Under the pieces are notes generated by a model that worked only from the letters and a program-made list of their open reading frames with translations, was not told the DNA's origin and searched no databases. From contig NZ_CP099489.1 of assembly GCF_023923225.1 (NCBI RefSeq), positions 2,542,001 through 2,606,000 of the forward strand: 64,000 bases of DNA, given 5' to 3'. This DNA comes from Ornithinimicrobium faecis. GTDB taxonomy: Bacteria > Actinomycetota > Actinomycetes > Actinomycetales > Dermatophilaceae. Positions 12,005 to 20,666 of this stretch are shown piece after piece (positions within the stretch are counted from its first letter, which is position 1; every line of letters starts with the position of its first letter). The translations under genes were made by a program, and so were the position numbers.

Positions 12005-12957
12005 GAGGCGCTCCCTTCGCCGGACTGGTCTCCGGATCGTTCGCCGGACAGCAAGTGATAGAGGATCGACATCCGGATCGCGACACCGGCGGAGACCTGG
12101 TCCAGGACCAGGGACTGGGCGGCGTCCGCCGCGTCCCCGGAGATCTCCAGGCCGCGGTTCATCGGCCCCGGGTGACAGATCACCGCGTGGTCCGGGAGGA
12201 GACCCAACCGGGCCTTGGTGAGGCCGTAGGTCACGGCATACTCCCTGGCCGTGGGGAAGAACCCGCCGGACATCCGCTCTCGCTGGACCCGCAGCATCAT
12301 GACGGCGTCCACGGTGGGCAGCACCGCATCGAGGTCGTGGGAGAGCTCGATGCCGTCGGCCTGCGCCCAGGCACCGATGCCAGCGGGCATCAGCGTGGCC
12401 GGGGCGACCAGGGTGACCTTGGCCCCCAGCGTGGTCAGGCACAGGACGTTGGAGCGGAACACACGGGAGTGGGTGAGGTCTCCGACCAGGGCCACGTGCC
12501 TGCCCTCGAGGTCGCCGAGGCGCTGGCGCATCGTGTAGGCGTCGAGCAGGGCCTGGCTCGGGTGCTCGTGGGTGCCGTCGCCGGCGTTGACGATCGAGCA
12601 GTTGGTCCACTGGGCGATCTGGGCCGGCGCACCGGAGGCCATGTGGCGGATGATCATCATGTCCACCCCCATCGCGTCGATCGTCTTGACCGTGTCGCGC
12701 AGGGACTCTCCCTTGGACACCGAGGTGCCCTTGCCGGTGAGGTTGATCGTGTCGGCCGACAGCCACTTGCCGGCCAGCTCAAAGGAGCTGCGGGTGCGGG
12801 TGGAGTCCTCGAAGAAGAAGTTGATGATGGTGCGCCCGCGCAGCGTCGGCAGTTTCTTGACGTCGCGGTGCTGGACCTCGTGCATGCTCACGGCGGTGTC
12901 GAGGATCTCGTTGATCTCGTCCCGGGAGAGGTCGGCGATGGACAGCAGGTGCTTCAC
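12001..12957 (-). CDS. pyrB: Aspartate carbamoyltransferase catalytic subunit
   Basis: PyrB condenses carbamoyl phosphate with aspartate, the committed pyrimidine step. The 318-residue protein has the carbamoyl-phosphate loop [22 protein letters not shown] and [11 protein letters not shown]. No pyrI regulatory chain follows, as expected in Actinobacteria. The start overlaps the pyrR stop (ATGA). The short acidic C-terminal tail ([15 protein letters not shown]) contains a repeated SGxxSG unit. Confidence 0.98.
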
Positions 12958-13553
12958 AGCGTCTCCCCTCCGCTCGCCGGCGCGGAGATGACGACCTGGT
13001 CACTGCCGTCTGACTCCGCGAGCCGCACGGACACGCGCTCGGCGTGGGCCGTGGGGAGGTTCTTACCGACATAGTCTGCGCGGATCGGCAGCTCGCGGTG
13101 CCCGCGATCGACCAGCACGGCGAGGCGGACCGCGCGCGGGCGGCCCAGGTCCGCGAGGCTGTCGAGGGCTGCGCGCACGGTGCGGCCGGAATAGAGCACG
13201 TCGTCCACCAGGACCACCACCTTGCCGTCGACACCGCCCTCGGGCACCTGGCTGCGCTCCATGGCGCGGACCGGTTGGGAGCGCAGGTCGTCGCGATACA
13301 TCGTGATGTCGAGAGTGCCCACCGGGATCTCGACGCCCTCGACGTCGTGCAGCGCGTCGGCCAGTCTGCGGGCCAGGGGGACGCCGCGCGTGGGGATCCC
13401 CATCAGCACCAGGTCCTCGGAGCCCTTGTTGCCCTCGAGGATCTCGTGGGCGATCCGGCGCAGTGCGCGGGAGATCTCGGCCTGGGCCAGCACCACCCGT
13501 CCACCGGTGTCGTCAGTTGGCCCCTCGGGGCCTCGGTCACGGGCAGGGCTCAT
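12954..13553 (-). CDS. pyrR: PyrR pyr-operon regulator / uracil phosphoribosyltransferase
   Basis: PyrR binds a hairpin in pyr mRNA when UMP/UTP is plentiful and lowers expression; many PyrRs also make UMP from uracil and PRPP. The 199-residue protein has the PRPP loop [18 protein letters not shown] and [15 protein letters not shown] 13553 is supported by AAGGAG seven bases upstream. It is the first gene of the operon, and the hairpin at 13562-13593 overlaps this SD. That arrangement suggests autoregulation by translational repression. Confidence 0.97.
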
Positions 13554-13561
13554 GGCCCACT

Positions 13562-13593
13562 CCTTCCCCGCCTCACAGGACGGTGGTTAAAGG
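13562..13593 (-). promoter_or_regulatory. PyrR-binding hairpin that sequesters the pyrR Shine-Dalgarno
   Basis: On the minus strand the pyrR leader contains GTCCTGTGAGGC (13570-13581), a near match to the PyrR binding-loop consensus ARUCCNGNGAGGYU, with the outer A and U replaced by C and G. It folds as CCUU-(UAA)-CC-(A)-CC-G(U)CC-loop-GGC-GGGG-AAGG. The 3' arm includes the AAGG of the pyrR SD (13560-13565). Mycobacterium smegmatis PyrR is known to repress translation through such a structure. The fold was drawn by eye. Confidence 0.82.
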
Positions 13594-13655
13594 ACGTCGT
13601 TGTATCTGGTGTGGTGCCCCGTACTCTACGCTCCCCGCCACCCCCACCTCCGACC

Positions 13656-13860
13656 GGGCGCGCGGTGTTGCGACCCTGACCCCCACCGAGCGCGCCGGCG
13701 ACTGACAATCCGGCCCACTGAGCGCGCCGGCGACTGACAATCCATCCGACCGAGCGCGCCGGCGACTGACAATCCATCCGACCGAGCGCGCGGGCGCCTG
13801 ACAATCCGGCCCACTGAGCGCGCGGGCGCCTGACAATCCGGCCCACTGAGCGCGCGAGGA
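13656..13860. repeat. Left array of 32-bp tandem repeats
   Basis: Six units start at exact 32-base steps (13656, 13688, 13720, 13752, 13784, 13816), with a partial seventh at 13848. The first is degenerate. Units read gagcgcg(c/cg)ggcg(a/c)ctgacaatcc followed by two variants of a short spacer. Read on the minus strand the core is caggcgcccgcgcgctcggt, which is nearly the core of the right array at 15066-15282. The array lies between the pyrR leader and the plus-strand gene at 13985. The rest of 13594-13984 shows no gene; part of it should hold the pyr promoter, for which I see only a weak TAGAGT candidate near 13622-13627. Confidence 0.93.
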
Positions 13861-13984
13861 CCCGGGTCGGGAACCGAGCCGTATGCCGAGTCGCTGGCTC
13901 TCCCAGCGCCTCACCCCATCACGGGGTCGACCAGGCTGTGGACAACTTCAGCGCGCAGTGGTGTCTTTCCCGCACCCTGTGCAG

Positions 13985-15025
13985 ATGCGACTCCCCCACG
14001 AACTGCGGTCATTAGGCCCCATCTTCACAAGGTCGAGCGCTCTGGAGGCCGGCTCCTCGGCATACGTCTTGGAGCGCACCACCGCTGACGGCGCACTGGT
14101 CCGCTTCGGGCGTGGCCTCTATCGGGTCCCGGTCGAGCTGGAGGATGGCCAGCCCTGGGAGGTTGCACGTGCCGAACACCTGCGGCGGTGTCGGGAGGCT
14201 CAGGCAGTCCACCCAGGACATGTCATCAGCCACCAGAGCGCCGCGGTCGTCCACGGCATGCAACTGCGGCTGCACCCAGCGATGAGCGTGCACCTCACGT
14301 CGGTGGACCGTGCTCCGTGCTCCCGTCGCGAGCCCGGGCTCGTCATGCACCACGCCGACTCGGTCTCAAACGATGTCGCGGTCGTGGACGGCATCCGCAC
14401 CACGACGCCGGCTCGCACCATTGCCGATGTGCTGAGGACCTCGCGCCCGCCCAACTCCGTGGCACTGTTCGACGCTGCTGTGCGCGATGGGCTGGTCACC
14501 GCTCAGGCCGTTCGGCGCGTGCTGGACACCCAGGTGCGTTGGCGTGGTCGACCTCGAGCACGCCAGGCCATGCAGCTGCACGATCCGAGGCGGGAGTCCT
14601 GGCTGGAGTCGTTCTCGTTCGTCGCCCTCCACGAACTCGGTGTCCCCCTGCCGGAGCCCCAGGTGCAGGTGCTCGACGAGGGATTTCACTTTGTCGGGCG
14701 AGTCGACGGGCTGCTGGGCAGCGTGTTCCTCGAAGCCGATGGCGAGTCCAAGTACTACCTGCTGACCGAGGAGCTGGGACTCACCCCGGCAGAGTCAGTG
14801 GCCCGGGTCCTCGAGAAGCAGTCCGATCGTCATGAGCGACTCGTTGGGCTGGGTCTGCAGGGCGTTCGCTGGACAACCCGGGAGATCCAACGAGAGCCCG
14901 GGCTGGTTGCTCGACGAATATGGGCTGCCGTCAACACCGCCAATCCCGCTGACTTCAACGGCTGGCTGCGCATCGGTGACCGCATCACTCGACCCCAGCC
15001 CCTCCCGCACCGCGCTGCAGGTTGA
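13985..15025 (+). CDS. AbiEi-type antitoxin-domain protein with C-terminal nuclease-like (DUF559/Vsr-fold) region
   Basis: The 346-residue protein starts with a winged-helix AbiEi-like segment (IFTRSSALEAG...VRFGRGLYRV). The family motifs HVISHQSAAVVHGM and TTPARTIADVL follow. The C-terminal third has GRVDGLLGSVFLEADGESKY, a D...ExD...K pattern like the DUF559/Vsr PD-(D/E)xK fold. ATG 13985 is used because the conserved part begins there; an earlier ATG at 13883 reaches into the repeat-rich leader. No AbiEii toxin is adjacent. The gene sits on the opposite strand to the nusB-pyr backbone and is bracketed by inverted 32-bp repeat arrays. Its target and role are unknown. Confidence 0.8.
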   Translation: MRLPHELRSLGPIFTRSSALEAGSSAYVLERTTADGALVRFGRGLYRVPVELEDGQPWEVARAEHLRRCREAQAVHPGHVISHQSAAVVHGMQLRLHPAMSVHLTSVDRAPCSRREPGLVMHHADSVSNDVAVVDGIRTTTPARTIADVLRTSRPPNSVALFDAAVRDGLVTAQAVRRVLDTQVRWRGRPRARQAMQLHDPRRESWLESFSFVALHELGVPLPEPQVQVLDEGFHFVGRVDGLLGSVFLEADGESKYYLLTEELGLTPAESVARVLEKQSDRHERLVGLGLQGVRWTTREIQREPGLVARRIWAAVNTANPADFNGWLRIGDRITRPQPLPHRAAG

Positions 15026-15065
15026 GTGGCGCAGATCCGCTCACAGGCGGCGCGGCAAACGGCTC

Positions 15066-15282
15066 ATCGGGCGCCCACGCGCTCGGTCGATCCAGAAACC
15101 AGGCGCCCACGCGCTCGGTCGACCCTGAGACCAGGCGCCCACGCGCTCGGTCGACCCTGAGACCAGGCGCCCACGCGCTCGGTCGACCCAGAAACCAGGC
15201 GCCCACGCGCTCGGTCGACCCTGAGACCAGGCGCCCACGCGCTCGGTCGACCCAGAGACCAGGCGCCCACGCGCTCGGTCGA
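15066..15282. repeat. Right array of 32-bp tandem repeats (inverted relative to the left array)
   Basis: Seven copies of gcgcccacgcgctcggtcga begin at 15071, 15103, 15135, 15167, 15199, 15231 and 15263, exactly 32 bases apart. The full core is caggcgcccacgcgctcggt. The roughly 12-base spacers alternate between ccctgagac and ccagaaac forms. The array ends directly at the nusB stop codon (15283), so it is also the nusB 3' untranslated region. Confidence 0.95.
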
Positions 15283-15696
15283 TTAGGCGAGGGTGGCCTT
15301 GACGTCGGAGACGCGGGCCAGCAGGCCGTTGACGAACTTCGGGGACTCGTCGGTGGACATGCCCGTGACGAGCTCGACGGCCTCAGAGATCGCGACCGGG
15401 TCGGGCACCTCGTCGTTCCAGACGATCTCCCAGGTTGCGACGCGCAGGGCAGCGCGATCGACCGAGGGCATGCGCTCCAACTGCCAGCCCTGGCTGTAGG
15501 TCTCCAGGACCTCGTTGATCTCGCCCCAGTGGGCCAGGACGCCCTCCACGAGGGTCACGGTGTATTCCGGGAGCGGGTGCTGGGTCGTCGGCGCGGCGAC
15601 CCGCTCGGCCAGCAACTGACCGATGTTGAGCTCGCGGGCCTCCGCCTCGAACAGGATCTCCAGCGCCCGTTTGCGCGCCTTGGTGCGTGCTGCCAC
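15283..15696 (-). CDS. nusB: Transcription antitermination factor NusB
   Basis: NusB binds boxA RNA with NusE (S10) and supports antitermination in rRNA operons. The 137-residue protein opens AARTKARKRALEILFEAE and has VDRAALRVATWEI and DESPKFVNGLLARV, all typical. The GTG start lies six bases after the efp stop, without an obvious SD, so coupling to efp is likely. Its stop codon abuts the right 32-bp repeat array. Confidence 0.96.
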   Translation of the reverse strand: MAARTKARKRALEILFEAEARELNIGQLLAERVAAPTTQHPLPEYTVTLVEGVLAHWGEINEVLETYSQGWQLERMPSVDRAALRVATWEIVWNDEVPDPVAISEAVELVTGMSTDESPKFVNGLLARVSDVKATLA

Positions 15697-19895: not shown

Positions 19896-20666
19896 ATGAG
19901 CTCCAACACCCCCAAGTCCCGCGCGTGGACCGTTGTCGTTGCTGCCACCGCCGTCACCGCGATCGGCGGAGCCAGTGTCGCCGCGGCCTGGACCACGCAG
20001 GCGGCCAGCCCCGAGACGACGGCTGTCACCAGCGCGGTGACCCTGAGTGAGCAGCGGAGCCTCACCGCGGACGACACCACCGCCAGCGCCGCCACCTGGG
20101 AGCGTCTGGGCAGCCAGGCCGGTGAGTGGAACGCAGCCAGCGTGTCCACCGCAGGCAGTGTGTTCGCCAAGGTGGGTGACATCAGCGCCGCCGAGGACGT
20201 CCAGTCCGCGAGCGTCCAGTCCGTCCAGTCGGTGGCCTCGGCGGTCAGTGCCCAGTCGGCCGTGAGCGCTCAGTCGGCACAGTCGCCGATCAGTGCCCAG
20301 TCCGCACAGTCGCCGATCAGTGCCCAGTCCGCGCAGTCGCCGATCAGTGCCCAGTCCGCGCAGTCGCCGGTCAGCGCCCAGTCCGCACAGTCGCCCATCA
20401 GCGCCCAGTCAGCTCAGTCGCCCATCAGCGCCCAGTCGGCACAGTCACCGATCAGTGCCCAGTCCCCGGCATCGCCGGACTCCCCCGCGTCCCCCGACTC
20501 GCCTGACTCCCCCGCGTCCCCCGACTCGCCTGACTCCCCCGCGTCCCCGGCATCGCCGGACTCCCCCGCGTCCCCCGACTCGCCGGACTCCCCCGCGTCC
20601 CCCGACTCGCCGGACTCGCCGGCGTCCCCCGACTCGGTCGACTCCCCGGACAGCGACGACGCCTGA
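19896..20666 (+). CDS. Secreted low-complexity Ser/Ala/Gln/Pro/Asp repeat protein
   Basis: I recognise no family. The 256-residue product has a Sec-like N-terminus: KSR, a hydrophobic run VVVAATAVTAIGGASVAAA, and a likely AXA cleavage near TTQAAS. About 70 ordinary residues follow. Then come roughly seven copies of the 9-residue unit SAQSAQSP(I/V) (27-bp DNA repeat, about 20262-20463) and a C-terminal tract of S-P-D and S-P-A units to DSVDSPDSDDA. There is no LPxTG, no C-terminal membrane helix and no Cys. ATG 19896 has AAAGGA upstream. It may be an acidic disordered wall or matrix protein. Confidence 0.8.
   Translation: MSSNTPKSRAWTVVVAATAVTAIGGASVAAAWTTQAASPETTAVTSAVTLSEQRSLTADDTTASAATWERLGSQAGEWNAASVSTAGSVFAKVGDISAAEDVQSASVQSVQSVASAVSAQSAVSAQSAQSPISAQSAQSPISAQSAQSPISAQSAQSPVSAQSAQSPISAQSAQSPISAQSAQSPISAQSPASPDSPASPDSPDSPASPDSPDSPASPASPDSPASPDSPDSPASPDSPDSPASPDSVDSPDSDDA

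What the first reader, a model, noticed from the sequence alone, without database searches (positions are those of the whole stretch)
13656..15282. A lone AbiEi/nuclease-like gene bracketed by two inverted arrays of the same 32-bp repeat
The left array (six units plus a partial, 13656-13860) and right array (seven units, 15066-15282) both have an exact 32-base period. The left core read on the minus strand, caggcgcccgcgcgctcggt, differs from the right core, caggcgcccacgcgctcggt, by one base, so the arrays are inverted around the gene at 13985-15025. Short spacers of about 12 bases differ between arrays. The gene interrupts the nusB-pyrR neighbourhood on the opposite strand. Such a gene-plus-inverted-arrays unit could be a mobile or self-marking cassette whose wHTH or nuclease domain recognises the repeat, a regulatory binding array, or simple repeat expansion.
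Basis: partly seen in the sequence, partly recalled or inferred. Interest (0 to 1): 0.82.

Follow-up and report, generated by a model that had tools for sequence, protein, structure and literature searches.

The report
Nuclease gene with its own repeats
A bacterial gene for a DNA-binding, nuclease-like protein is bracketed by mirror-image repeat arrays, and the same repeats are scattered through the chromosomes of species that carry that gene type, which suggests an unrecognised enzyme-and-repeat partnership like the known REP elements but built around an unrelated enzyme.

Summary
In detail: seven 32-bp units on the minus strand (13653-13855), an AbiEi_4 gene (13985-15025), seven units on the plus strand (15068-15282). 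The core is not private to the gene: pairs of cores 32 bp apart (up to 2 mismatches) occur 208 times in the genome, 4 in the reversed control. This does not dissolve the finding. All 24 genus homologues examined (41-74% identity, and the window's own) have a 21-23 or 32-33 bp array on at least one side, against 2 of 19 distant AbiEi loci. Repeat sequence and period follow the gene's clade. Units from arrays of two other clades are scattered almost only through genomes with that clade's gene. The pairing recurs in another family with 19-bp and palindromic repeats. The C-terminal region aligns with DUF559-bearing homologues and keeps an invariant E..Q..D..ExDG set (52 of 52). Arrays favour gene 3' ends. 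Best reading: a REP-RAYT-like system with an unrelated, PD-(D/E)XK-type enzyme. Enzyme action on the repeats is inferred, not shown; no structure model was obtained.

The parts
13653..13855 (-). left array, 7 cores (GCGCTCGGT read on the minus strand, up to 1 mismatch) at exact 32-bp steps
13985..15025 (+). gene for a 346-aa AbiEi_4 wHTH plus DUF559/PD-(D/E)XK-like protein; the start at 13985 is inferred from homologues (the longest ORF starts at 13883)
13985..14131 (+). N-terminal AbiEi_4 domain, residues 1-49 (28.1 bits, cut-off 25)
14582..14872 (+). nuclease-like region, residues 200-296, with invariant E204, E208, Q226, D241, E250, D252, G253, K256, Y257, R282
   Evidence: alignment with DUF559-bearing homologues
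15068..15282 (+). right array, 7 units of 32 bp with plus-strand cores; it ends at the nusB stop codon
15283..15696 (-). nusB, whose 3' end abuts the right array
   Evidence: adjacent to efp and pyrR homologues in several relatives, (the names nusB, efp and pyrR are recognised from sequence, not from a family search)
12954..13553 (-). pyrR, whose 5' end faces the left array
   Evidence: one strong match in each of 31 genus genomes

Best explanation
The gene encodes the cognate enzyme of a REP-like repeat family. Shown: (a) close homologues are flanked by tandem arrays, mostly on both sides and in inverted orientation; (b) array sequence and period are clade-specific (32/33 or 22/23 bp in the genus, 19 bp or a palindrome in another family); (c) the same units are dispersed, mostly at gene 3' ends and mainly in genomes with that gene clade, often as inverted pairs around a short centre; (d) the nuclease-like residues are invariant and the gene is under purifying selection. 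Inferred: the wHTH binds the unit, neighbouring molecules bind side by side at the fixed spacing, and the C-terminal domain nicks or cuts there. Repair from another copy, or tandem duplication of one unit, then lengthens and re-seeds arrays. Gene 3' ends are where such arrays survive because they do little harm, or because a bound array also blocks transcription.
For: Flanking arrays: 24 of 24 close homologues against 2 of 19 distant AbiEi loci, Fisher p 4e-10; both sides 18 of 24 (two of these counting a 41- or 44-bp period as doubled units) against 1 of 19; 4 of 546 other genes in 600 kb of three relatives are bracketed by inverted arrays. Clade-period link: clades of 3, 3, 8 and 8 genes (ultrafast bootstrap 99-100) each have one period class. 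Dispersal tests: the 22-bp unit of G011/G028/G029/G017 has 121/172/97/131 hits, otherwise only G004 21, G030 17, G007 1, G021 1, and 0 in 23 of 31 genomes, controls 0; the unit of G007/G026 has 71/87, otherwise G021 7, G002 4, and 0 in 27 of 31, controls 0. 32-bp type: 11 of 12 genomes with a clade A or D gene have hits, against 5 of 19 others. Other family: G039 83 hits against 4 control, G057 23 against 0. Ruler: 95 of 112 same-strand core distances up to 45 bp are exactly 22 in 600 kb. Catalytic set invariant in 52 of 52. One site with 3 units in G028, 1 in G011 and none in G017 (by eye) fits tandem growth in place.
Against: No binding or cleavage was tested and no structure model was obtained. 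Most array sites are shared by descent (64 of 88 comparisons), so spread is slow. Repeats occur without a gene of the matching clade in G016, G018 and G021 (32-bp type, 3, 3 and 6 hits), in G030 and G021 (22-bp types, 17 and 7), and in G008 (23) and G006 (4) beside gene remnants. Six of 19 distant AbiEi loci have some TRF array of period 18-45 within 700 bp if the period window is opened. Fisher tests ignore phylogeny; genomes and orthologous sites are not independent. A 19-bp period does not fit whole helical turns. Whether these genomes also carry a RAYT was not searched. Of the four best homologues outside the genus, G035 shows no array and G051 only one-sided 17-bp direct repeats (by eye).
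Confidence: 0.6

Rival explanations
1. Architectural or regulatory system: the protein binds the phased arrays as a cooperative filament that acts as a one-way transcription roadblock or insulator at gene 3' ends, and the arrays are kept by selection on the host. The nuclease fold is used only for binding or regulation.
For: Fixed orientation: the GGTG edge faces a gene 3' end in 45 of 53 arrays of three relatives and in 41 of 61 in G000. No array site in a divergent promoter region among 39 intergenic sites of those relatives, 9.5 expected by length. No terminator-like site in the window locus (0, shuffle mean 0.4).
Against: Catalytic residues invariant in 52 of 52. In G000 20 of 61 arrays do not follow the rule, and 7 of 61, the left array here among them, lie between two gene 5' ends. 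Avoidance of promoters alone could give the same pattern.
Confidence: 0.25
2. Self-marking, toxin-antitoxin or defence: the nuclease cuts DNA unless arrays titrate or restrain it, or the protein restrains a partner.
For: AbiEi proteins appear in PADLOC defence models (72.3 bits at best). In G012 a nucleotidyltransferase-like ORF (PF10706, 35 bits, cut-off 21) lies between the homologue and the array near pyrR.
Against: In the window the neighbours are pyrR and nusB, with no such partner; no match in phage records; the pairing of each gene clade with its own repeat type looks like target recognition.
Confidence: 0.06
3. Passive hitch-hiking: another machinery (for example an unseen RAYT) spreads the repeats and the gene merely lies among them.
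For: Other single genes are bracketed too (GNAT and DUF2516-like in G011 and G028; larB-like and VOC-like in G000; names from reading).
Against: 4 of 546 other genes bracketed against 18 of 24 homologues with arrays on both sides; three repeat types follow three sets of gene clades; recurrence in another family.
Confidence: 0.06
4. Simple repeat expansion without link to the gene.
For: Tandem growth in place is suggested at one site.
Against: Gene-clade link, fixed period, intergenic placement and orientation.
Confidence: 0.03

Closest known systems
RAYT (TnpA-REP) with REP, BIME and REPIN repeats (REPtron)
   Same: Gene flanked by its repeats in inverted orientation; repeats dispersed between genes; gene and repeat co-vary; repeat abundance follows gene presence; inverted doublets around a short centre (PMC2817692 abstract and its section on RAYTs, REPs and BIMEs; PMC3116915 abstract).
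   Different: The enzyme shows no HUH/Y1 domain in Pfam but AbiEi_4 plus a DUF559/REase-like region. In the genus the units are head-to-tail and strictly phased (22 or 32 bp), not palindromes.
AbiEi antitoxins of type IV toxin-antitoxin systems
   Same: N-terminal AbiEi_4 domain above the Pfam cut-off. AbiEi binding of repeats in its own promoter is recalled, not looked up.
   Different: No toxin gene beside it in the window; C-terminal nuclease-like region; dispersed repeats.
DUF559 / REase_MTES_1575 nuclease-like domains
   Same: Five distant homologues, picked because their domain lists showed it, all reach DUF559 above its cut-off over the region aligned with D241-E250-D252.
   Different: Of 27 nearer family members only 1 matches DUF559 (E 0.061) and 2 MTES_1575 (best E 0.028); the window protein matches neither.
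MIRU/VNTR-type intergenic tandem repeats (recalled)
   Same: Copy number varies between relatives.
   Different: Here sequence and period follow a gene clade.

Membership tests
RAYT/REP (REPtron) | HUH-superfamily Y1 tyrosine transposase | tested here: not met
   Pfam scan of 27 family members: AbiEi_4 in 22; no Y1 transposase among the six families matched
RAYT/REP (REPtron) | gene flanked by two repeats in inverted orientation | tested here: met
   18 of 24 with arrays on both sides; the inverted match exceeds the direct match in 13 of the 14 genus genes whose left and right consensus had equal length (exception L083)
RAYT/REP (REPtron) | repeat abundance correlates with presence of the cognate gene | tested here: met
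   Fisher values, with the exceptions listed under evidence against
RAYT/REP (REPtron) | palindromic 20-40 bp repeat unit | tested here: not met
   six units of the window folded alone: none stands out from shuffles (z -1.3 to +1.6); units are direct repeats; only the G057 repeat is a palindromic pair
RAYT/REP (REPtron) | enzyme processes its repeat DNA | not testable with these tools
   needs biochemistry
AbiEi/AbiEii type IV toxin-antitoxin | AbiEi wHTH domain | tested here: met
   PF13338 27.1-28.1 bits, cut-off 25
AbiEi/AbiEii type IV toxin-antitoxin | neighbouring nucleotidyltransferase toxin | tested here: not met
   window neighbours are pyrR and nusB; one relative, G012, does have a nucleotidyltransferase-like ORF beside the homologue; the others were not checked for it
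PD-(D/E)XK / DUF559 nuclease | conserved acidic catalytic set in a restriction-endonuclease fold | tested here: inconclusive
   residues invariant in 52 of 52 and aligned with DUF559-bearing homologues; the fold was not modelled because the job never finished

The most novel reading that the evidence does not exclude
An independent, second class of repeat-making enzyme in bacteria: an AbiEi wHTH fused to a PD-(D/E)XK-type nuclease that writes and maintains strictly phased arrays of its own binding site (period 22 or 32 bp, set by the enzyme clade) at the 3' ends of genes across the chromosome, with REPIN-like forms in a second family.
Probability: 0.5. Interest if true: 0.92.

Novelty: categorically new. 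Interest (0 to 1): 0.85.

Why it matters
How short intergenic repeats arise and persist in bacteria is explained so far, to my knowledge, mainly by one enzyme class, the HUH-type RAYTs. A convergent system with an unrelated nuclease would show that gene-plus-dispersed-repeat partnerships evolved more than once. It would also give a function to proteins now named only as orphan AbiEi antitoxins. Because natural enzyme and repeat pairs of different period coexist in one genome (G011, G017, G028, G029), target recognition and the spacing rule are directly testable.

Tried and rejected
Rejected: a private cassette (the core is genome-wide); a phage or plasmid gene (no phage match, two weak plasmid matches); a known RNA family in 13400-15400 (none at E<=0.1); a hairpin in each unit (a weak stem in the right-array units, no better than shuffles). 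A replichore effect was only glanced at, not counted. My first reading, 'not gene-bound', was overturned. PDB sequence search with the family profile: no hit. Literature searches for AbiEi, DUF559 or this genus together with repeats gave no listed title or abstract that reports such a link: (listings only; open-access library; preprints on bioRxiv not held). Papers opened: PMC2817692 (abstract, one section), PMC8266576 and PMC3116915 (abstract and outline only).

Full report
OBSERVATION. The window holds two 32-bp arrays of seven cores each, minus strand at 13653-13855 and plus strand at 15068-15282, around an AbiEi_4 gene at 13985-15025. All steps within both arrays are 32 bp. Chance is excluded: 12 core matches against a shuffle mean of 0.18.

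THE CORE IS GENOME-WIDE. In the 4.62-Mb genome (G000) the 20-mer with up to 3 mismatches has 136 hits against 7 for the reversed pattern. The pair GCGCTCGGT-N23-GCGCTCGGT with up to 2 mismatches has 208 against 4. Only the first hundred or so rows of each list were shown, so the places fetched are not all. In them, with the window, a script that allowed steps of 31-33 found 61 arrays with 243 units: 171 steps of 32 and 11 of 33. 217 of the 243 units are distinct. Five of the 61 arrays lie inside predicted ORFs, with 8 of the 11 33-bp steps.

THE GENE IS NEVERTHELESS TIED TO THE ARRAYS. The genus is Ornithinimicrobium-like, judged from source names of close homologues. A protein search of 58 genomes listed 24 full-length genus genes at E<=1e-60, the window's own included. 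I examined all 24: 17 among the 30 loci returned and 7 fetched by place. TRF finds an array of period 21-23 or 32-33 within 700 bp on at least one side in 24 of 24, and arrays on both sides in 18 of 24 (in L096 and L142 one side has period 41 or 44, taken as doubled units). Of 19 distant AbiEi loci, 2 have a period of 20-24 or 31-34 (L109 weak, 2.1 copies; L110 on both sides); four more have other periods on one side (L111 27, L150 39, L151 19, L152 18) (Fisher p 4e-10 and, for both sides, 18/24 against 1/19, 6e-6). Left out of the 24: pieces at contig ends. In G023 the visible side has an 18-bp TRF array, and by eye three cores 32 bp apart before it. In G005 the visible 3' side has no TRF array, and by eye two copies of GACCGGCGACACGGTCGGT, close to the unit of a 34-bp array near its pyrR. 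In 600 kb of three relatives 7 of 549 genes are bracketed by inverted arrays: the 3 homologues and 4 others, two orthologue groups.

REPEAT TYPE FOLLOWS GENE CLADE. The tree has clades A (3 genes, 32/33 bp), B (3, 22 bp), C (8, 22 bp) and D (8, 32 bp), each with ultrafast bootstrap 99-100; G001 (32) and G025 (23) are unplaced and the deep order is unresolved. All 12 proteins with 22-23 bp arrays carry a C-terminal extension, mostly rich in basic residues; of the 12 with 32-33 bp arrays, 10 lack it and 2 (G004a, G012) have unrelated-looking tails (read by eye). I then predicted that units from arrays beside other clades' genes would be dispersed in those genomes. The 22-bp unit of the G011/G028/G029/G017 gene gives 121, 172, 97 and 131 hits there, 21 in G004 (also clade C), 17 in G030 (no such gene seen), 1 each in G007 and G021, and 0 in 23 of 31 genomes, controls 0. 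Three other clade C genomes (G002, G016, G024) have none; their gene-side units differ. The unit of G007/G026 gives 71 and 87, 7 in G021 (no close gene), 4 in G002 (clade B), and 0 in 27 of 31. The exact 32-bp pair pattern is in 16 of 31 genus genomes and in 0 of 27 others. Of 12 genomes with a clade A or D gene (G023 counted by its 72% identity, not in the tree) 11 have it; the exception, G012, has a 33-bp type of its own. Of the 19 others 5 have it (G008 23, G021 6, G006 4, G016 3, G018 3). The Fisher test put G012 among the others (11 of 11 against 5 of 20, p 7e-5). G008 and G006 keep gene remnants at the nusB end (E 1e-15 and 3e-4; best of five shuffles 0.007).

ANOTHER FAMILY. G039 and G057 (same order, other family) carry 38%-identical homologues. 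That of G039 is flanked by inverted 19-bp doublets and that of G057 by inverted 22-mers on each side. The G039 19-mer has 83 copies against 4 control in G039, 13 against 3 in G057, 2 against 4 in G000 and 1 against 6 in G011. Of neighbours within 120 bp in G039, 22 are minus-then-plus at offsets 33, 34, 52 or 53, 27 are tandem at exactly 19, and none is plus-then-minus. Of 20 sites fetched, taken in contig order and not all, 10 are convergent, 9 co-directional and 1 divergent. The G057 22-mer has 23 copies against 0, 16 of them in 8 inverted pairs 51 bp apart. The two other best homologues outside the genus gave less: G035 no array, G051 one-sided 17-bp direct repeats (by eye).

PLACEMENT AND GEOMETRY. 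In G011, G028 and G017 the 39 intergenic sites are 13 convergent, 26 co-directional and 0 divergent (9.5 expected by length); 6 more sites lay inside predicted genes. The GGTG edge faces a gene 3' end in 45 of 53 arrays. These genomes are close relatives, so sites are not independent. In G000 the rule is weaker: 41 of 61 arrays follow it, 34 of 61 end within 35 bp of a stop codon, and 7 of 61 lie between two gene 5' ends. Genes were called by my own script. All 13 neighbouring array pairs closer than 1.7 kb in G000 are minus-then-plus; two single cores at 645529 and 645800, not counted as arrays, are the other way round. Four pairs have a centre of exactly 50 bp, and those four hold the palindrome GTATGCCG...CGGCATAC. 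Orthologous sites carry arrays in 64 of 88 comparisons, with differing unit counts. One site has 3 units in G028, 1 in G011 and none in G017 (by eye).

THE PROTEIN. Pfam: AbiEi_4 at residues 1-49. Ten residues besides H83, among them E204, E208, Q226, D241, E250, D252 and K256, are invariant in the 52 sequences aligned (the window's and 51 of the 120 homologues listed). Five distant homologues reach DUF559 over the aligned region; in that wider set K256 is not invariant. That this is a PD-(D/E)XK nuclease is inference from the motif; no model was obtained (job, last polled). dN/dS is 0.13-0.48 in 16 pairs of clade C and D genes. The gene lies next to pyrR also in G019, G012, G007, G026 and G025: clade A, clade B and an unplaced gene at one locus. 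So either period changed within a lineage or genes replaced each other there.

MECHANISM AND COMPARISON. The layout matches what linked RAYTs to REPs: inverted repeats around the gene, cognate dispersal, and abundance tracking gene presence (PMC2817692, abstract and one section read). The enzyme is not a RAYT by domain and the genus units are not palindromes, so this is a functional analogue, not a member. I favour enzyme-driven growth and spread (0.6) over a purely architectural role (0.25). The orientation rule is the best evidence for the latter, and both may hold. The spacings 22 and 32 lie near two and three turns of B-DNA (recalled), 19 does not.

Noticed in passing
G000 563573, 1605440, 3699554, 4423571 and 12 other places: A second repeat, the palindrome GTATGCCG-N-CGGCATAC (16 places, reversed control 0), sits in the exact 50-bp centre of four inverted array pairs; other copies lie elsewhere.
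   Followed up: partly
nusB-pyrR gap in relatives, L114, L115, L117, L118: The gap is a variable site: besides the AbiEi gene it holds what reads to me as a MerR-type regulator gene (G006, G008, G018) or another ORF (G014); identities by eye.
   Followed up: partly
L071 2930-3100 (G000 about 3688448): An array inside a predicted ORF that reads in frame as HRAHGVATSDP repeats; 8 of the 11 33-bp steps in G000 lie inside ORFs, as if the array had been fitted to the codon frame.
   Followed up: partly
L110 1138-1282 and 2285-2360 (G015): A distant AbiEi homologue (34% identity) also flanked by 32-bp arrays on both sides, perhaps another subfamily with the same habit.
   Followed up: no
G011 2917571-2918144 and 2780681-2781011; G000 L041, L077: Single unrelated genes (GNAT-like, DUF2516-like, larB-like, VOC-like, named by eye) bracketed by inverted arrays.
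   Followed up: partly
L119 575-1228 (G012): A nucleotidyltransferase-like ORF (PF10706) between the AbiEi homologue and the array near pyrR, a possible partner in that one genome.
   Followed up: partly
window 19896-20666: ORF with long SP-rich repeats (ISAQSAQSP, DSPASPDSP), TRF arrays at 20251-20651.
   Followed up: no
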